Shown here piece by piece: positions 42,370-51,240 of a stretch of 64,000 bases of DNA; within the stretch, counting starts at the first letter, position 1, and each line of letters begins with the position of its first letter. The DNA is from Microlunatus soli (lineage in GTDB: Bacteria > Actinomycetota > Actinomycetes > Propionibacteriales > Propionibacteriaceae). The DNA lies in contig NZ_LT629772.1 of assembly GCF_900105385.1 (NCBI RefSeq), positions 3,286,001-3,350,000 of the forward strand. The letters are read 5' to 3'. The notes beneath the pieces were generated by a model. That model saw nothing but the letters and a program-made list of their open reading frames with translations. It did not search any database and had not been told where the DNA came from. The translations under genes and the position numbers were made by a program.

Positions 42370-43944
42370 TCAGTCGACGCGCAGGCTCTCGAAGTCGGTC
42401 GAGCCGGGCAACCGTACGGTGAACTCCGCACCGCCCTGTGCCGACCGGCCGGCCCGGATAGTGCCGCCGTGCCGGGCGACGGCCTGCGCGACGATCGACA
42501 GACCGAGCCCGGTGCCTGGGGTGTTGCGGGAGGTGTCGGCGCGATAGAACCGGTCGAAGATGTGCGGCAGATCCTGCTCGGCGATGCCCGAACCCTCATC
42601 GGCGACCCGGAGCCGGTCACCCTCCAGCTGGACCCGGACGGTGCCGCCCGGCGGGCTCCACTTGACCGCGTTGTCCAGCAGGTTGGTGACCGCCCGTTCC
42701 AGGGTGTCGGCCTCACCGACCAGATAGAACGGGTTCAGCTCGACGTCGAATTTCAGACCCGGGCCGCGCCGCCGTACGCGTTCCAGGGCGGCGTTCACGA
42801 CATCGCGGAAGTCGATCGGCTCCGGCGCGGGTTTGACCTGATCGTCACGGGCCAGCTGGACCAGATCGCCGATCAGACTGGTGAATTCGGCCAACTGCGC
42901 GGTGACGTCGGCCAGGATCTCGGCCCGCGCCTGCTCCGGCAGATGGCCCTGCTTCTGGTCGGCCTGCAGCAGCTCGATGTTGGTCCGCAGGCTGGTCAGC
43001 GGCGTCCGCAGCTCATGCCCGGCATCACCGATCAGCCGCCGCTGCCGTTCCCGGGACTGCTCCAGCGACGTCAGCATCTTGTTGAACGACTCGGCCAGCC
43101 GGGACAGCTCGTCGTTGCCGGTGACCGGGATCGGATCAAGATCGTCGGTGTCGGCGACGTGCTCGGTCGCCGCGGTCAGCCGGCGCACCGGACGCAGCCC
43201 GGACCTGGCCACCGCCGATCCGGCGATCGCCGCCCAGACCACACCGGCGGCACCGAAGATCACCAACACCAGCCAGAGCGAGCTGAGCACCAGGTTGGTC
43301 GGCCGCAGCGGCCGACCCAGCACCAGTGCCAGTTCCGAATTCGGCACCGGGACGGCGACCACCCGATACGGCTCGCCGTTGGACGCGGTCGCCGACCGCA
43401 CCGAACGGCTACTACCCAGCCGGGCGACCGACAGCTCCTCCGGACCCGGCTGCAACGCGATCTGCTCCTGCGGCAGCTGATAGACCTGCCCGTCGGCCCG
43501 GATCAGGGCCGCGCTGGCGTTGGCAGCGCGGACCGCGGCCGCGGTGGTCTCGTCCAGGTTCTGCGGATCGTCGCCGACCGAGGTGGCCACCGTGGTGGCA
43601 AGATCAAGAAGCCCGGAGTCGAGTTGCTGATACAGCGCAACCCGGGTCGTCAGGTACGCTGCCGCACCGGTCACCGCAACCGCCAGGGCGACCGCGACCG
43701 CCGTCAGCACGGTGACCCGGGTCTGCAGCGAGAAGGTGCGCAGGAAGGACCGGAACCGCAGGATCAACGAACCCGGGATGACCAGCTGAGTACCCCGGAT
43801 CCGCAACACCCGCGGCTCCGGCGGGCCCCACCGTTCGAGATCGTCCCCGGTGGAGTCGTCGCGGCTGGGTTCGTCCCGGCCCGCGATGTCCCGGCCCGCA
43901 GTCTCCCGGCCCGGTTCCTCGCGGCCCGGATCGTTGTCGGCCAT
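42370..43944 (-). CDS. mprB: Sensor histidine kinase, MprB-like
   Basis: The 524-residue protein has a charged N-terminal cytosolic tail with repeated GRD/GRE units (residues 7-30), a first membrane helix (about 80-100), an extracellular sensor region (about 101-215), a second helix (about 220-242), HAMP, HisKA with RRLIGDAGHELRTPLTSLRT (His310), and a HATPase with N-box LLDNAVKWS and G-boxes DEGSGI and GTGLGLSIVAQ. The GDAGHELRTPL string and the partner gene are typical of mycobacterial MprB, the envelope stress sensor. It lies 35 bp after its response regulator. Confidence 0.9.
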   Translation of the reverse strand: MADNDPGREEPGRETAGRDIAGRDEPSRDDSTGDDLERWGPPEPRVLRIRGTQLVIPGSLILRFRSFLRTFSLQTRVTVLTAVAVALAVAVTGAAAYLTTRVALYQQLDSGLLDLATTVATSVGDDPQNLDETTAAAVRAANASAALIRADGQVYQLPQEQIALQPGPEELSVARLGSSRSVRSATASNGEPYRVVAVPVPNSELALVLGRPLRPTNLVLSSLWLVLVIFGAAGVVWAAIAGSAVARSGLRPVRRLTAATEHVADTDDLDPIPVTGNDELSRLAESFNKMLTSLEQSRERQRRLIGDAGHELRTPLTSLRTNIELLQADQKQGHLPEQARAEILADVTAQLAEFTSLIGDLVQLARDDQVKPAPEPIDFRDVVNAALERVRRRGPGLKFDVELNPFYLVGEADTLERAVTNLLDNAVKWSPPGGTVRVQLEGDRLRVADEGSGIAEQDLPHIFDRFYRADTSRNTPGTGLGLSIVAQAVARHGGTIRAGRSAQGGAEFTVRLPGSTDFESLRVD

Positions 43945-43979
43945 CGCCGATCACGACCCGCCGGTGAAGTCGCTGCGGA

Positions 43980-44696
43980 TCACGGGGGCGTCTCGCGGAG
44001 CACGTAGCCGACCCCGCGGACGGTGTGGATCAGCCTCGGCTCGTCCTCGGCCTCGGTCTTGCGCCGCAGATAGCCGATGTAGACCTCGAGCGAATTGGCG
44101 GTGGTCGGGAAGTCGAAGCCCCAGACCTCGTTCAGCAGCCAGGAGCGTTCCAGCACCCGCCGCGGATGCTCCATGAAGGCTTCCAGCAGGGCGAACTCGG
44201 TCCGGGTCAGGGTGATCGCGCGGCCACCACGGACCACCTCACGGGTCTGGATGTTCAGCGCCAGATCGCTGAAGCTCAGGCTGTCGGCGGACGGATCGGC
44301 CGAATCGGCGACCGTGCCGGCCCGCCGGACCAGGGCCCGCAGCCGGGCCAGCAACTCGTCCAGTGCGAACGGCTTGACCAGATAGTCGTCGGCGCCGGCA
44401 TCCAGACCGTCGACCCGATCGCCGACCGCGTCCCGCGCGGTGAGCACCAGGATCGGCACGTCGTTGCCCGCCGAACGCAGCATCCGAGTGGTCTCCAGCC
44501 CGTCCAACTTCGGCATCATCACGTCCATGATCACCGCGTCCGGGCGGACCGCGCCGAGCCGGGCCATCGCCTCCAGACCGTCCCCGGCCGTGGTCACCTG
44601 ATACCCGCTGTAAGCCAGCGAACGGCGCAGTGACTCCCGGACCGACTGATCGTCGTCGACCACCAGTACGTGCATGTCCGCGTTCTGACCCGACAT
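43980..44696 (-). CDS. mprA: OmpR-family response regulator, MprA-like
   Basis: The 238-residue protein has a receiver domain with acidic pocket VVDDD (near residues 13-15), phospho-acceptor Asp58 ([12 protein letters not shown]) and Lys near 107 ([14 protein letters not shown]). A winged-helix output domain follows (about 140-235; [41 protein letters not shown]). Close resemblance of [14 protein letters not shown] and [19 protein letters not shown] to MprA supports the name. ATG 44696 is selected because GGGAG lies 5 bases upstream. Phosphorylation by the adjacent kinase should control envelope-stress genes. Confidence 0.9.
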
Positions 44697-44736
44697 CTGA
44701 CTCCCGATCCGCTTCCGTTGGCCGATCCTGTTGTGC

Positions 44737-45396
44737 CTAGCTTCCGGTGCACCCATCTTGCCCGACCGGACGGCTGATCGCGGTGAGCAGCGCCTCCATC
44801 GGGCCCGGGTCGACCGCCGATTCGGTCAGCAGAGCGGTCAGCTCGATCCGGGACGCGCAGGCGTGCAGCATCGAGATCGCGGTCCGGTAGTCGACGGTGA
44901 ACTCGATACCGATCGCGGTCAGTGCCTGCTCGACCAGATGACCGAGGCTGTCGTACAGCTGGTTCAGGTAGGCACTGTACGGAGCCCGCAGCTCGGGACG
45001 GCGGATGGCGTACAGATCCATCTCGTGCCGAGCCAGCACCTCGGCCGGTTCCTTGGCGACGTCGCCGAACATCGTGCTCAAGGCCAGATTGATGAGCATC
45101 CCGGGCTGGTTCCCGCGCTCGGCGGCGTTGTCCACCAAGGTCACCGAGATCTCCCGGACCTTCTCTCGGGCGTCCTCGGCGTCGCGCTGAACCATCGCCA
45201 GCACGAGGTCGTCCTTGTCGGTGAAGTTCGAGTAGAACGCGCCCCGGGTGAAGCCCGCTGCTTCGCAGATCTCCTCGACGCTGGCGCCGATGATGCCGCG
45301 TTCGGCGAACACACCGACCGCTCCGGCCATCAGACGGTCCCGAGTCTGGGCACGACGAGCGGACGGTGCCGGTGTGCTGGCGGCCGTCTTCGTCAT
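44737..45396 (-). CDS. TetR family regulator
   Basis: The 219-residue protein has a TetR N-terminal domain: [20 protein letters not shown], then helix-turn-helix [20 protein letters not shown] with [12 protein letters not shown] (about residues 15-75). The C-terminal part is helical, with no ligand evident. It is the first gene of the minus-strand cluster (40 bp before mprA) and diverges from the MMPL/YhgE operon. Three overlapping GTATC-type dyads between the two start codons are likely operator sites. It probably represses the exporter and perhaps its own cluster. Confidence 0.9.
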
Positions 45397-45511: not shown

Positions 45512-45546
45512 GGATACACATCTGTATCCGGATACAGTACTGTATC
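45512..45546. promoter_or_regulatory. Triple overlapping operator dyads upstream of the MMPL gene
   Basis: GGATACA-N4-TGTATCC (45512-45529), CTGTATCCGGATACAG (45522-45537) and GATACAGTACTGTATC (45531-45546) are all perfect palindromes that share half-sites. They lie 71 bp before the MMPL start and 116 bp from the TetR start. Stacked half-sites suggest cooperative TetR binding. Confidence 0.7.
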
Positions 45547-45616: not shown

Positions 45617-48367
45617 ATGTCCTCATTTCTGTACGGCCTCGGCCGGGCTGCCTTCCGGCACCGGTTCCGCGTCCTCGGGGTCTGGCTGGCGATCCTGGTG
45701 CTCGCCGGTCTCGGCGCGCTCGGTCTCGGCAAGACCTTCGACAACGCGTTCACCCTGCCCGGGACCTCCTCCCAGCAGGCGTTGACGCAGCTGGAGCACA
45801 CCTTCCCCCAGGTCAGCGGTGCCTCGGCCCAAGTGATCATGGTCGCTCCCGACGGTGAGTCGGTCCGCGATGCCGAGGTCCGAGACGCGATCGACGACGC
45901 GGTCGCCGACTACAAGAAGATGGACCAGGTCGCGGCGGCGGCATCGCCGTTCGACAAGAACGCCGGCGACGCGATCGCGGAGGGGGGCAAGGCGGCGCTG
46001 ATCAGTGTCCAGCTCGACGGCCAGCGGGCCGACATCACCGAAGAAACCACCGAACAGCTGACCAAGATCACCGAGCAACTCCAGCAAGCGGTCCCGGGAT
46101 CGCAGGCCTCGGTCGGAGGCGACGCCTTCAGCATGGACTCGGTCGAGCTGAGCATCACCGAGGTGGTCGGCGTCGTCGTCGCCCTGGTGGTGCTGCTGAT
46201 CACCCTCGGATCGTTCGTCGCCGCCGGAATGCCGCTGCTGAACGCGATCCTCGGTGTCATCATCACCATGGCCGGCATCATGGCTGCCACCGGAGTGGCC
46301 AAGATCAACTCCTCCACGCCGATGCTGGCCCTGATGCTCGGCCTGGCCGTCGGCATCGACTATGCGCTCTTCATCATCTCCCGGCACCGTGATCAGCTGG
46401 CCGACGGGATGGACGCCGAGGAGTCGACCGCCCGCTCGGTCGCCACCGCCGGATCGGCGGTGGTCTTTGCCGGGCTGACGGTGATGATCGCGCTGGCCGG
46501 CCTGTCGGTCGCCGGCATCCCGTTCCTGACCACGATGGGCATTGCTGCGGCGATCGGCGTCGCCGTCGCCGTCGCGATCGCCCTCACCCTGCTGCCGGCC
46601 ATGCTCGGCCTGGCCGGTGAACGGCTCCGACCCAAGCCCCGCCGGGCCAAGCAGAAGGCCGCCCGACAGGCACAGGACCCGTCAGCGCTGCGAGGTGCTC
46701 AGCGGTTCTTCTCCGGCTGGGTGAAGATCGCGACCAAGATCCCGATCCTGACCGTCGTGGTGGTGATCGGTGGCCTCGGCGCCCTGGCGCTGCCGGCACG
46801 CGGGCTGGAGCTGGCACTGCCCGACAACGGCAGTGCGGCAGCCGGTTCACCGGCCAGGGTCACCTACGATCTGGTCGCCAAGTATTACGGTGCGGGACAG
46901 AACGCGCCGTTGATCGTGACCGCCGACATCGTCACCTCCGACGATCCGCTCGGTGTGATGGACGACCTGAAGTCCGAGATCGAGGACCTGCCGGGCGTGG
47001 CCCGGGTGCCGCTGGCGACGCCGAACCAGAATGCCGACACCGGCATCGTTCAGGTGGTGCCGACCTCGGCCGGTGACTCCGAGCAGACCAAGCAGCTCGT
47101 CCAGCGGATCCGTGATCTTGCCCCCGGGTTCGAGGACGAACACGGCACCGCGGTGAACGTCACCGGCACCACGGCGATCCAGATCGACGTCTCCGATCAG
47201 CTCGGCAAGGCGCTGCTGCCGTTCGGCATCCTGGTCGTCGGGTTGTCACTGGTGCTGCTGATGATGGTGTTCCGCTCGATCGCAGTGCCGCTGAAGGCGG
47301 CCGTCGGCTACCTGCTCAGCGTCGGAGCATCGTTCGGGGTCGTGTCGCTGGTCTTCCAGCACGGCTTCCTGGCCGACCTGCTCAACGTGGACAAACAAGG
47401 GCCCGTGCTCAGCTTCCTGCCGATCATCCTGATGGGCATCCTGTTCGGGCTGGCGATGGACTACGAGGTCTTCCTGGTCTCCCGGATCCGCGAGGACTAC
47501 GTGCACGGCGGCGACGCGCAGCGGGCGATCCGGACCGGCTTCATCAGCTCGGCCCGGGTGGTGACCGCGGCCGCGGTGATCATGTTCGCGGTGTTCGCCG
47601 CCTTCATTCCCGAAGGCGACTCGACGATCAAGGCGATCGCCGTCGGGCTGGCGACCGGCGTCTTCGTCGACGCCTTCATCGTCCGAATGACACTGGTGCC
47701 AGCCGTGCTTGCCCTGTTGGGCAAGACCGCCTGGCGGCTGCCGGCCTGGATCGACAAGCGGCTGCCGTCGTTCGACGTCGAGGGCGCCGAGTTGGAGCAT
47801 CTGGTGGCGTTGCGGGACTGGCCGGAGCCGGACAGCACGGCACTGATCAGCGCCGAAGGGCTGACGGTCCGGGTCGAACGCCAAGGACGCAGCGAGTTGA
47901 TCTTCGACCGCACCGACGTCGCTCTGCAGCCCGGGCAGCTGCTGGTTGTCGAGGGCAGCGACGTGGCCCGTTCGGCGTTGCTCTGGACACTGTCGGGACG
48001 GATGCGTCCGAGCACCGGCTCGGTCAAGTCGCTCGGTCTGGTGCTGCCGCAGCAGGCCGGCGGCGTACGGCGTCGCAGCCGGCTGATCGATCTGGCCACG
48101 ACCGATGATCAGGTCGGTGCGCTGTCCGCCGCGCGTGATCGGCGGACGCCGTTGATCATGGTCGACCACGTCGAACGGATCGCCGCCGGGCCGGCGTCCG
48201 CGGCACTGTCGGAATTGATCACCGATTGCGCCACCGGTGGCCGTGGGTTGGTGCTCGCAGTGGCCGATCTCGCTGCCGTGGAAGGAAATCTGCCGGAGAG
48301 CTACCTACGGCTCCGGCTGGCGCCGGTAGAAGCGCCCGAATACGAGTTGTCAGGAGTCAGGGTATGA
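45617..48367 (+). CDS. MMPL/RND transporter with C-terminal degenerate ABC-ATPase-like domain
   Basis: The 916-residue protein has a duplicated MMPL transporter core (helix 1, soluble loop, five helices; repeated). GLAVGIDYALFIISRHRDQL and FGLAMDYEVFLVSRIREDY mark the central helices of each half. After helix 12 (about residue 715) a soluble domain (about 741-910) starts ALISAEGLTVRVERQGRSEL and has LVVEGSDVARSALLWTLSGR (about 776-795), the Walker A position with G-K changed to A-R. It continues with LVLPQQ (Q-loop-like) and PLIMVDHVE (Walker B-like, about 845), but has no LSGGQ signature. This resembles a degenerated ABC ATPase. Its stop overlaps the YhgE start by 4 bp. Probably an envelope lipid or drug exporter. 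Confidence 0.85.
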   Translation: MSSFLYGLGRAAFRHRFRVLGVWLAILVLAGLGALGLGKTFDNAFTLPGTSSQQALTQLEHTFPQVSGASAQVIMVAPDGESVRDAEVRDAIDDAVADYKKMDQVAAAASPFDKNAGDAIAEGGKAALISVQLDGQRADITEETTEQLTKITEQLQQAVPGSQASVGGDAFSMDSVELSITEVVGVVVALVVLLITLGSFVAAGMPLLNAILGVIITMAGIMAATGVAKINSSTPMLALMLGLAVGIDYALFIISRHRDQLADGMDAEESTARSVATAGSAVVFAGLTVMIALAGLSVAGIPFLTTMGIAAAIGVAVAVAIALTLLPAMLGLAGERLRPKPRRAKQKAARQAQDPSALRGAQRFFSGWVKIATKIPILTVVVVIGGLGALALPARGLELALPDNGSAAAGSPARVTYDLVAKYYGAGQNAPLIVTADIVTSDDPLGVMDDLKSEIEDLPGVARVPLATPNQNADTGIVQVVPTSAGDSEQTKQLVQRIRDLAPGFEDEHGTAVNVTGTTAIQIDVSDQLGKALLPFGILVVGLSLVLLMMVFRSIAVPLKAAVGYLLSVGASFGVVSLVFQHGFLADLLNVDKQGPVLSFLPIILMGILFGLAMDYEVFLVSRIREDYVHGGDAQRAIRTGFISSARVVTAAAVIMFAVFAAFIPEGDSTIKAIAVGLATGVFVDAFIVRMTLVPAVLALLGKTAWRLPAWIDKRLPSFDVEGAELEHLVALRDWPEPDSTALISAEGLTVRVERQGRSELIFDRTDVALQPGQLLVVEGSDVARSALLWTLSGRMRPSTGSVKSLGLVLPQQAGGVRRRSRLIDLATTDDQVGALSAARDRRTPLIMVDHVERIAAGPASAALSELITDCATGGRGLVLAVADLAAVEGNLPESYLRLRLAPVEAPEYELSGVRV

Positions 48368-51240
48368 AGACCGTGTTCGGACTGGAGCGGACGACCGGAA
48401 GTCGTCGGTTGTCCTGGGTGTCCTTGGTCGGAGTGCTCCTGGTACCGATCCTGATCGCCGCCGGATTCCTGGCGGCCACCTGGGACTCCAGCTCGCGCTG
48501 GCACAAGGTGCAGGCGGCGATCGTCAACAACGATGACGGTGCCAAGATCAACGGGCAGTTGGTGCCATTGGGCCGGCAACTGTCCGGCGGTCTGGTCGAC
48601 GGTGGCTCCGACGGCGACGACAAGGCGGTGAACAACTTCGACTGGGTGATCACCGATGCCGACGACGCCGCCGACGGGCTGGCCTCGGGACAGTACGCGG
48701 CCGTGGTGACGATCCCGAAGGACTTCTCCAAGAACGCGACGTCCTACTCCCACAACGACGGCGACAAGGCCGAGCAGGCGACCCTGGACATCGCCACCTC
48801 GAAGGTGTCCGGGATCACCGACTCCGCGATCGGGCAGGCGATCTCCAGTACCGCCGTGCAGACCATGAACACCGAGCTCACCAAGCAGTATCTGGGCAAT
48901 CTCTATCTCGGCTTCAACCAGACCGCCGACGGGATGAAGAAGTCGGCCGACGGTGCCGCCAAGCTGTCCGACGGCTCCAGCCAACTCAGCGACGGCATCG
49001 GCAAGTCCGCCGACGGCTCGGCCAAGCTCACCGACGGTCTGGACCAACTGGGTACGGGCACCAAGCAGTTGGCCGGGGGGCTGCACCAGACCGATTCCGG
49101 CGCATCGCAGCTGGCTGACGGCACGTCCGGCCTGGCCGACGGGATCAAGCAGACCGATGCCGGCGTGGTGAAGCTCGACAACGGCGTCGCCACCTTGGAC
49201 AAGTCCACCGGCGCCTTCGTCGACGGCGTCCAGCAGACCGCCGACGGCGTCGACAGCTACACCGGCGGGGTGCAGAAGTACGTCAACGGCGTCGGCCAGT
49301 ACGCCGACGGCGTCAACTCCTACGTCGGCGGCGTCGAACAGCTCGCCGGGGGAGTGCCCGGCTACGTCGACGGCGTCAGCTCCTACGTCGGCGGCGCCAA
49401 TCAGTTGCTCGGCGGTGTCGGGCAGTATGCCGACGGTGTCGATCAGTACGCCTCCGGTGTTGATCAATACGCGACCGGGGTGAAGAAGTTCACCGGCGGG
49501 ATCAGCGAGTACACCGACGGCGTCAGCGGTTACGTCGGCGGCGTCAACAAGTACAGCAACGGTGTCGACAGCTACCTCACCGAAGGCGTCGCCCCGTACG
49601 TGACCGGGGTCAAGGACTACGCCGGTGGCGTCGACCAATACGCCGGTGGAGTCAGGGACTACGTCAAGGGTGTCAACCAGACACCGGACCAGGTCGCCGA
49701 CGGAGTCACCAGCCCGGAGTCCCTCCAGGCCGCCTGTGCGCAAGCCGGCCTGACCGGCAAGGACTGCGTGAACTTCCAGAACGGGATGAAGGCCGGCGCC
49801 AACGGTACGGCGGACGGTGTCACCTCGGCGCTCAAGGAGCCGGGCCAGAAGATCAGGTCCGGCGCCGACGATCTGCAGGACGGTTCGGACAAGATCAGCA
49901 GCGGCAGTGACGGTGTCCTCGACGGCGCTGACAAGACGACCGCGGGCGGGAAGGAGCTGCGCGCCGGTGGCAAGGACCTGAAGGACGGCGGCAAGCCGCT
50001 CACGTCCGGCGCGTCCAAGCTGAGCACGTCCTCGACCAAGATCATCGAGGGATCGGACAAGATCAGCGGCGGCGCCGATCAGCTCTCCGGGGGCGCCGCC
50101 AAGCTGACCACAGGCGGCGAGCAGCTGATCACTGGCGGCGACAAGCTCAGCAGCGGTGCCGAACAGCTCGGGCAGAACGCTCCCAAGATCAAGAAGGGCG
50201 CCGATCAGCTGTCCGGCAAGAACGCCGATCAACTGGTGTCCGGCGGTGATCAACTCAGCACCGGCGCCACCAAACTGGCCGACGGCGCCAAGCAGCTCGG
50301 CACCGGGATCAGCGGACTGCACACCGGCACCAGCAAGCTCGCCGACGGGACCGGCAAGCTGGCCACCGGCGCAACCCAACTGAACACCGGCGCCCAGAAG
50401 CTGGCCGACGGCACCGGCAAGCTGGCCGAAGCCGGTGATCAACTTGCCAGCGGGACCGCACAGTCGGCTAAGGGATCGGCGCAGCTGACGGACGGGCTGA
50501 AGAAGCTCGACGACGGCGGCAAGACCCTGTCCGACGGGACGGCCGACCTGGCCGACGGGCTGCAGAAGGGCGCGGACCAGCTGCCGTCGTACTCCAAGAA
50601 CGACCGCACCCAGCTGTCCAAGGTCGCCAGCGCACCGGTCAGCACCGACCAGACCGATGAGCTCTTCTCCAACGTCGTCACCACCACCCTGCTGATGGCG
50701 CTGGCGTTGTGGATCGGCGGGCTCGCGACCTACCTGGTGGTCCGCGCGGTGCCGCGGGACGCGTTCGGTTCGTCGAAGTCCGCCGCCCGGCTCGCGCTCG
50801 AAGGCGTTGCCCCGGGGGCGATCATCGGAGCGATCCAGGCCGTGGTGTTGTCGATCATGCTGACCGCCTTGCTCGACCTGTCGGCCGGCCGCTTCCTGGG
50901 CCTGCTCGGCTTCGGGCTACTGGCGGCCGCGGCGTTCGCAGCCCTCAACCACGCCCTGGTCGCCTGGTTCGGCGGCGTCGGCCGCTTCATCTCGCTGGCC
51001 GTCGTGGTGCTGTCGGCCGCGGCGTCACTGACCAATGCGTTGCCGGCCTTCTTCGACACGATCCGGCCCTGGCTGCCGCTGACCCCGGCACTCGACGGGA
51101 TCCGCGCGATCGTCACCGGGGCGTCGGCCGGAAGCCAGGTCGGCGTGCTGATCGGCTGGCTGGTGATCGGCGCGGCCGCCGGCATCCTCGCCGTCGCCCG
51201 CCGTCGGATGGCACCATCCGCGGCCCCCGCCACCCCCTGA
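48364..51240 (+). CDS. YhgE/Pip family protein with 22 heptad repeats
   Basis: The 958-residue protein has an N-terminal membrane helix (about 15-40), a conserved VQAAIVNNDDGAKINGQLVP start of the YhgE domain, a long extracytoplasmic region, and five or six C-terminal helices (about 780-950) with the Pip-like AALNHALVAWFGGVGRFISL. Residues 285-439 are 22 heptads of type Y-x-x-G-V-x-x, and about 180-280 and 500-740 are runs of L-x-D-G/G-A-x-x-L repeats, all predicted to form rods or coiled coils. YhgE/Pip proteins are membrane scaffolds or phage-infection proteins of unclear transport role. Coupling to the MMPL gene by a 4-bp overlap suggests a joint envelope complex. Confidence 0.87.
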   Translation: MKTVFGLERTTGSRRLSWVSLVGVLLVPILIAAGFLAATWDSSSRWHKVQAAIVNNDDGAKINGQLVPLGRQLSGGLVDGGSDGDDKAVNNFDWVITDADDAADGLASGQYAAVVTIPKDFSKNATSYSHNDGDKAEQATLDIATSKVSGITDSAIGQAISSTAVQTMNTELTKQYLGNLYLGFNQTADGMKKSADGAAKLSDGSSQLSDGIGKSADGSAKLTDGLDQLGTGTKQLAGGLHQTDSGASQLADGTSGLADGIKQTDAGVVKLDNGVATLDKSTGAFVDGVQQTADGVDSYTGGVQKYVNGVGQYADGVNSYVGGVEQLAGGVPGYVDGVSSYVGGANQLLGGVGQYADGVDQYASGVDQYATGVKKFTGGISEYTDGVSGYVGGVNKYSNGVDSYLTEGVAPYVTGVKDYAGGVDQYAGGVRDYVKGVNQTPDQVADGVTSPESLQAACAQAGLTGKDCVNFQNGMKAGANGTADGVTSALKEPGQKIRSGADDLQDGSDKISSGSDGVLDGADKTTAGGKELRAGGKDLKDGGKPLTSGASKLSTSSTKIIEGSDKISGGADQLSGGAAKLTTGGEQLITGGDKLSSGAEQLGQNAPKIKKGADQLSGKNADQLVSGGDQLSTGATKLADGAKQLGTGISGLHTGTSKLADGTGKLATGATQLNTGAQKLADGTGKLAEAGDQLASGTAQSAKGSAQLTDGLKKLDDGGKTLSDGTADLADGLQKGADQLPSYSKNDRTQLSKVASAPVSTDQTDELFSNVVTTTLLMALALWIGGLATYLVVRAVPRDAFGSSKSAARLALEGVAPGAIIGAIQAVVLSIMLTALLDLSAGRFLGLLGFGLLAAAAFAALNHALVAWFGGVGRFISLAVVVLSAAASLTNALPAFFDTIRPWLPLTPALDGIRAIVTGASAGSQVGVLIGWLVIGAAAGILAVARRRMAPSAAPATP
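49216..49680 (+). repeat. 22 x 21-bp coding repeat
   Basis: Twenty-one-base units encode Y-[AV]-[DG]-G-V-x-x heptads in frame (one unit has an extra codon at YLTEGVAP). Units are diverged, not identical, indicating old amplification under selection for the amino-acid pattern. Confidence 0.8.

What the first reader, a model, noticed from the sequence alone, without database searches (positions are those of the whole stretch)
45617..51240. MMPL transporter fused to a degenerate ABC-ATPase-like domain, coupled to a repeat-rich YhgE/Pip protein
Seen in sequence: the MMPL protein continues past its last helix into a soluble domain (about residues 741-910) with Walker A-, Q-loop- and Walker B-like positions but A-R replacing G-K and no signature motif. 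Its stop codon overlaps the YhgE start by 4 bp. Known: YhgE/Pip genes often sit beside atypical ABC ATPase genes in actinobacteria, and MMPL pumps use proton motive force. Inference: here the ATPase-like partner has been captured by the transporter as a fixed scaffold or sensor, making one RND-plus-YhgE envelope machine.
Basis: partly seen in the sequence, partly recalled or inferred. Interest (0 to 1): 0.72.

Follow-up and report, generated by a model that had tools for sequence, protein, structure and literature searches.

The report
Proton pump fused to dead ABC domain
In many soil and skin actinobacteria, including this one, a proton-driven membrane pump (MMPL) carries at its end a worn-out copy of the ATP-burning motor that normally serves the neighbouring transporter YhgE, which suggests that the two work as one hybrid machine, although this has not been shown by experiment.

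Summary
The 916-aa MMPL protein (45617-48367) continues past its membrane part into a soluble domain. AlphaFold2 models this domain with high confidence (pLDDT 90.8, pTM 0.86) as an ABC-ATPase core lacking the helical subdomain. The P-loop is one residue short with K replaced by R; the catalytic Glu, H-loop and signature are absent. YhgE follows with a 4-bp overlap.

It is not a local oddity or artefact. The fusion occurs in about 110 loci across many Actinomycetes families, always beside YhgE wherever the contig allows a check. The fused MMPLs form one clade against 15 unfused ones, and those 15 have no YhgE next door. The domain descends from the free-standing ABC protein normally encoded just upstream of YhgE: in 13 of 13 genomes tested that gene is the best free-standing match to a profile of the fused domains. 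The domain lost catalytic motifs repeatedly, yet stays under purifying selection. The proton-relay Asp-Tyr pairs of MMPL are invariant.

Best reading: the pseudo-ATPase is a fixed adaptor that docks YhgE, an ABC-2-type permease, onto a proton-driven pump under a dedicated TetR repressor. Docking and substrate are inferred, not shown. This is a new variant of known kinds.

The parts
44737..45396 (-). TetR-family regulator, divergent from the operon
   Evidence: Pfam TetR_N E 1.3e-12; present at the same place in nearly all fused loci
45513..45546 (.). Two tandem palindromes GATACA-N4-TGTATC (45513-45528 and 45531-45546), likely TetR operators
   Evidence: Only these two sites in the 6.73-Mb genome, reversed-pattern control 0; same palindromes upstream of several relatives
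45617..48367 (+). MMPL transporter with C-terminal pseudo-ABC domain, 916 aa
46358..46363 (+). Asp248-Tyr249 of the proton relay (first half)
   Evidence: Invariant in the 27-row alignment of relatives; aligns with the IDY stretch of MmpL3 7nvh
47459..47464 (+). Asp615-Tyr616 of the proton relay (second half)
   Evidence: Invariant in the 27-row alignment of relatives; aligns with the TDYEVFL stretch of MmpL3
47777..47824 (+). Linker helix and invariant Trp735-Pro736 (residues 721-736)
   Evidence: Helix in model, invariant WP
47834..48331 (+). Pseudo-ABC ATPase domain (about residues 740-905), NBD core without helical subdomain
   Evidence: AF2 pLDDT 90.8, VIA Z 17.9 to ABC NBDs
47954..47974 (+). 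Degenerate P-loop GSDVARS (residues 780-786)
48152..48169 (+). Walker B-like LIMVDH (residues 846-851), catalytic Glu replaced by His
48364..48367 (+). ATGA stop/start overlap
   Evidence: a 4-bp overlap in 68 of 113 related loci, a 1-bp overlap in 15
48364..51240 (+). YhgE/Pip family protein, 958 aa: one N-terminal TM, extracytoplasmic xxxLxxG repeat stalk, C-terminal ABC-2 permease domain
   Evidence: TIGR03061/TIGR03062 above cut-off, ABC2_membrane_3 E 1.5e-20
50653..51216 (+). YhgE membrane domain (residues 764-951) with ABCG-type permease fold
   Evidence: AF2 high confidence here; VIA Z 16.9 to ABCG2, 184 residues, 2.5 A

Best explanation
The operon encodes a hybrid RND/ABC-2 envelope transport complex. 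Shown by sequence and structure prediction: (1) MMPL is an MmpL3-like RND transporter with both proton-relay Asp-Tyr pairs kept. (2) Its C-terminal domain is a pseudo-ATPase descended from the ABC protein that normally partners YhgE. (3) YhgE is an ABC-2-type (ABCG-like) permease with a long extracytoplasmic repeat stalk. (4) The arrangement TetR / MMPL-pseudoNBD / YhgE is conserved over many families. Inferred: the pseudo-NBD still binds the cytoplasmic face of YhgE, so it tethers YhgE to the pump as a fixed adaptor. It no longer hydrolyses ATP, at least in this genome, and the work is driven by the proton motive force through MMPL. The complex probably moves an envelope lipid or amphipathic compound, with its expression repressed by the neighbouring TetR protein.
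For: Fold of the domain. Origin: a profile of 25 short fused domains (the less degenerate L054 and L056 left out) finds the YhgE-adjacent ABC gene as the best free-standing match in 13 of 13 genomes, including this one (E 1.7e-7 against 2.0e-6 for the next), each genome having 101-372 first-look candidates. A less degenerate fused domain (L054) does so in 13 of 18 genomes, with E down to 7e-30. Pfam ABC_tran recognises less degenerate fused members above its cut-off (L054 E 3.1e-16, L090 E 3.8e-8). Linkage: YhgE lies directly downstream in all evaluable fused loci, none of the 15 unfused MMPLs has YhgE nearby, and no separate ABC gene was found between MMPL and YhgE in fused loci. One fused clade, SH-aLRT 99. 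Loss of catalysis: GK[ST] in 17 of 111, at least 6 changes on the tree; helical subdomain kept in 13. Maintained: dN/dS of the domain 0.14-0.47 in 16 pairs. YhgE permease fold. Proton-relay pairs invariant.
Against: No docking was modelled or measured. The short form lacks the helical subdomain, which in ABC exporters supplies much of the TMD contact (established knowledge of type V exporters), so the docking mode would have to differ. The domain mostly evolves faster than the pump (dN/dS about 1.0-2.9 times that of MMPL), which fits relaxed constraint. Seventeen fused members keep GK[ST], so nucleotide binding may persist elsewhere. In this genome the margin of the YhgE partner over the next ABC gene is small. 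The substrate is unknown. The 15 unfused MMPLs are a small sample.
Confidence: 0.6

Rival explanations
1. Nucleotide sensor: the domain binds ATP/ADP or another ligand without hydrolysis and gates the MMPL pump.
For: 16 of 112 fused domains keep GxxxxGK[ST] (17 with one partial motif) and many keep the Walker B Asp.
Against: In this protein the P-loop is short, Lys is Arg, and the residues after Walker B are changed; 95 of 112 have no Walker A at all. It does not explain the constant YhgE neighbour.
Confidence: 0.15
2. Relic: a once functional NBD that is now a tolerated tail, decaying slowly; MMPL and YhgE work separately and are merely co-transcribed.
For: Repeated mosaic loss of catalytic motifs and of the helical subdomain; mostly faster evolution than MMPL.
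Against: dN/dS well below 1 in all 16 pairs; only 2 of the 112 or so fused loci (L139, L158) look frameshifted in the MMPL gene; confident compact fold; invariant WP, GR, G, P and R positions.
Confidence: 0.15
3. ATP-dependent hybrid: the domain still completes an active heterodimer or is activated by another NBD, so ATP is still used.
For: Asymmetric ABC pairs with one degenerate site are known (established knowledge, e.g. CFTR); some free YhgE partners keep a full P-loop (L165, L063).
Against: No second ABC gene next to the fused pair; the free YhgE partners sampled also lack DE, LSGGQ and the H-loop.
Confidence: 0.08
4. Assembly or annotation artefact joining two genes.
For: None found.
Against: The fusion is present in about 110 independent loci, including complete genomes.
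Confidence: 0.01

Closest known systems
MmpL3 (trehalose monomycolate exporter), RND/MMPL family
   Same: Best solved relatives of the transporter part (E 6.9e-58), same Asp-Tyr proton-relay motifs
   Different: Score far below the MmpL3 equivalog cut-off (232 against 1400 bits); its C-terminal domain here is ABC-like; YhgE partner
YhgE/Pip plus free-standing ABC protein (ABC-YhgE-TetR operons of Actinomycetes, Pip of Firmicutes)
   Same: YhgE passes TIGR03061 and TIGR03062 cut-offs; the fused domain is a relative of the free ABC partner
   Different: The ABC partner is not a separate gene but the tail of an MMPL pump, and is more eroded
EsaA of the type VIIb secretion system
   Same: N-terminal homology to the YhgE extracytoplasmic domain (E 2e-13)
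   Different: Score below cut-off (50 against 122 bits)
ABCG/ABCA-type (type V) exporters
   Same: YhgE membrane domain folds like the ABCG2 TMD (Z 16.9) and the fused domain like an NBD core (Z 17.9)
   Different: NBD is on a different, proton-driven protein, with no catalytic residues and no helical subdomain

Membership tests
ABC ATPase (NBD) fold/homology | RecA-like core with antiparallel beta subdomain | tested here: met
   AF2 pLDDT 90.8; Foldseek E 2.6e-10; VIA Z 17.9 over 157 residues
ABC ATPase (NBD) fold/homology | Pfam ABC_tran above gathering score | tested here: not met
   No Pfam hit for the window domain; less degenerate relatives L054 and L090 pass
Active ABC ATPase | Walker A GxxxxGK[ST] | tested here: not met
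   GSDVARS; 95 of 112 fused domains also lack it
Active ABC ATPase | Catalytic Glu after Walker B | tested here: not met
   LIMVDH: His in its place
Active ABC ATPase | Signature LSGGQ and helical subdomain | tested here: not met
   About 20 residues between strand 821-825 and Walker B; mid segment of 28 aa against 86-125 in long members
Active ABC ATPase | ATP binding and hydrolysis | not testable with these tools
   needs a biochemical assay
MMPL/RND transporter | Pfam MMPL domains | tested here: met
   E 1.8e-97, two stretches
MMPL/RND transporter | Asp-Tyr proton-relay pairs in both halves | tested here: met
   D248-Y249 and D615-Y616 invariant and aligned with MmpL3
MmpL3 equivalog | NCBIfam NF052608 cut-off | tested here: not met
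   232 bits against 1400
YhgE/Pip | TIGR03061 and TIGR03062 above cut-off | tested here: met
   126.4 of 96.15 and 104.5 of 102.2 bits
EsaA (T7SSb) | TIGR03929 above cut-off | tested here: not met
   50.4 against 122 bits
YhgE-partner ABC family | Closer to YhgE-adjacent ABC genes than to other ABC genes of the same genome | tested here: met
   13 of 13 genomes with a profile; 13 of 18 with a single related query

The most novel reading that the evidence does not exclude
A hybrid transporter in which a proton-driven RND pump mechanically drives an ABC-2 permease (YhgE) through a catalytically dead NBD fused to the pump: proton motive force has replaced ATP as the energy source of an ABC-type permease.
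Probability: 0.3. Interest if true: 0.85.

Novelty: new variant of a known kind. Interest (0 to 1): 0.6.

Why it matters
RND and ABC transporters are normally treated as separate classes with separate energy sources. A conserved fusion of an RND pump to the (dead) motor domain of an ABC-2 permease, with that permease next door, is a natural link between them. It gives YhgE/Pip, known mainly as a phage-infection protein, a concrete partner and a testable mechanism. It also marks an undescribed domain family that general libraries miss in its eroded forms. The series from nearly complete to fully eroded domains lets one ask experimentally when and how ATP use was lost.

Tried and rejected
Assembly artefact: rejected by about 110 fused loci. 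Unrelated fold: rejected by the model and fold search. Recent degeneration in this genome only: rejected. A relative in which MMPL, the domain and YhgE form one ORF (L046, 1863 aa) as proof of one machine: set aside, because the junction reads out of frame through a stretch with a 16-bp tandem repeat and looks like a frameshift. Top matches of the window domain in other orders (L058-L060) are ordinary dipeptide-type ABC ATPases: the single-sequence search is too noisy, so profiles were used instead. A class-wide search with the full-length alignment A2 failed on the server and a single-protein search was used. YhgE by Foldseek alone gave no match with E under 0.001, because of the long low-confidence stalk; VIA on the confident membrane part was clear. 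Docking of the domain to YhgE could not be modelled: coordinates are not exposed and only two jobs were allowed. Literature searches for the fusion found nothing relevant in the open library; subscription papers were not searchable.

Full report
Observation. The MMPL gene is 45617-48367 (916 aa) and YhgE is 48364-51240 (958 aa), joined by ATGA. Pfam covers MMPL (E 1.8e-97) and stops near residue 715; the last 190 residues have no Pfam hit and only weak hits to CcmA-type ABC proteins in NCBIfam and to MlaF in PDB sequences.

Fold. An alignment of 28 C-terminal domains (A1) gave an AlphaFold2 model with pLDDT 90.8 and pTM 0.86. Foldseek returned over a thousand matches with E under 0.001, the best an ABC NBD (FtsE) at 2.6e-10. 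VIA Z was 17.9 at 2.4 A over 157 residues. The secondary structure shows a linker helix (721-734), the beta subdomain (744-779), the P-loop helix (782-792), strand 821-825, then only 20 residues to the Walker B strand (846-850), where a normal NBD has the helical subdomain and signature. The P-loop is GSDVARS; Walker B is LIMVD followed by His; no H-loop His is present.

Spread. In the genome's own family (genomes G000-G032), 26 of 33 genomes carry the fused domain, and the loci examined show TetR divergent, then MMPL with the domain, then YhgE. A scan of named genomes returned 80 further loci, nearly all clearly fused, from Microbacteriaceae, Brevibacterium, Promicromonosporaceae, Pseudonocardiaceae, Glycomyces, Bifidobacterium, Nocardioides, Cutibacterium and others. 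YhgE follows with a 4-bp overlap in 68 of 113 loci, a 1-bp overlap in 15 and a short gap in most others; the rest are contig ends or apparent frameshifts. Fifteen close MMPLs without the domain have no YhgE nearby, while the five class-level ones with it do. On a tree of 126 MMPL domains the 111 fused ones are one side of a branch, SH-aLRT 99 (quick method, small unfused sample).

Origin. Free-standing YhgE genes in the class are preceded by an ABC-type gene (18 of 20 by score; the other two, L172 and L178, resemble the L171 protein by eye). A less degenerate fused domain (L054) searched in 18 genomes finds the YhgE-adjacent ABC gene first among free genes in 13 of them, with E from 7e-30 to 5e-11. 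A profile of only short, degenerate domains (A4) finds it first in 13 of 13 genomes, including this one, although in this genome the margin over the next ABC gene is small (1.7e-7 against 2.0e-6). Fused domains and free partners share the L-x-G-R stretch after the P-loop, and many share LPxxAxxVR after it. The free partners sampled are themselves atypical: no LSGGQ, no DE, no H-loop, and K replaced by R in several. So the fused domain comes from the YhgE partner family, which was already unusual.

Erosion and constraint. Of 112 fused domains 16 keep GxxxxGK[ST] and one more GKS; 13 of 111 keep a long middle segment; only L054 and L056 keep both. The tree needs at least 6 changes of the P-loop state and 3 of the helical subdomain. 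In 16 close pairs, dN/dS is 0.14-0.47 for the domain and 0.07-0.24 for MMPL: faster, but clearly under purifying selection. The P-loop-bearing pair L054/L056 has near-equal ratios (0.23 and 0.24).

Partners. The MMPL part is closest to MmpL3 among solved structures (E 6.9e-58), and its two Asp-Tyr pairs (D248-Y249, D615-Y616) are invariant in the 27-row alignment. The membrane domain of YhgE (764-951) has the ABCG-type permease fold, Z 16.9 to ABCG2, in line with ABC2_membrane_3 (E 1.5e-20). Upstream lie two tandem palindromes GATACA-N4-TGTATC, the only two in the genome, with a reversed-pattern control of 0, and similar ones in relatives, so TetR control is probably local and dedicated.

Mechanism. 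ABC-2 permeases need an NBD; here the NBD relative is fixed to a proton-driven pump and has lost its chemistry, while the proton relay of the pump is intact. The simplest reading is an adaptor that holds YhgE to MMPL, with proton motive force as the energy source. Shown: homology, predicted fold, origin, linkage, loss of motifs, constraint. Inferred: docking, complex formation, energy coupling, substrate (envelope lipid or amphiphile). Because the helical subdomain is missing, any docking must differ from that of ordinary exporters; this is the weakest step.

Novelty. MMPL, YhgE and ABC NBDs are all known. The conserved fusion, its origin in the YhgE partner and its repeated erosion were not found described in the open literature searched. 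I file it as a new variant of known kinds.

Noticed in passing
G000:C1:2597500-2609000 (L165), outside the window: The same genome has a second YhgE with a free-standing ABC partner that keeps an intact P-loop (GTDGSGKST): a natural internal comparison for the fused, eroded copy.
   Followed up: partly
L046:6000-6240: In one relative MMPL, the domain and YhgE read as one 1863-aa ORF through a 16-bp tandem repeat that shifts the frame; real fusion or sequencing error not decided.
   Followed up: partly
L166-L184: Free-standing YhgE-partner ABC proteins across Actinomycetes lack signature, catalytic Glu and H-loop; several have Arg for the Walker A Lys. The whole YhgE-partner family may be pseudo-ATPases.
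   Followed up: partly
L064:3560-9377: A same-genus genome (G019) has a second, divergent fused MMPL-YhgE pair whose domain is longer and keeps an EE after Walker B.
   Followed up: no
45513-45546: Two tandem 16-bp palindromes unique in the genome, in the TetR-MMPL intergenic region.
   Followed up: yes
42370-44756: A two-component system (histidine kinase and response regulator ORFs) lies next to the TetR gene on the minus strand; link to the operon not examined.
   Followed up: no
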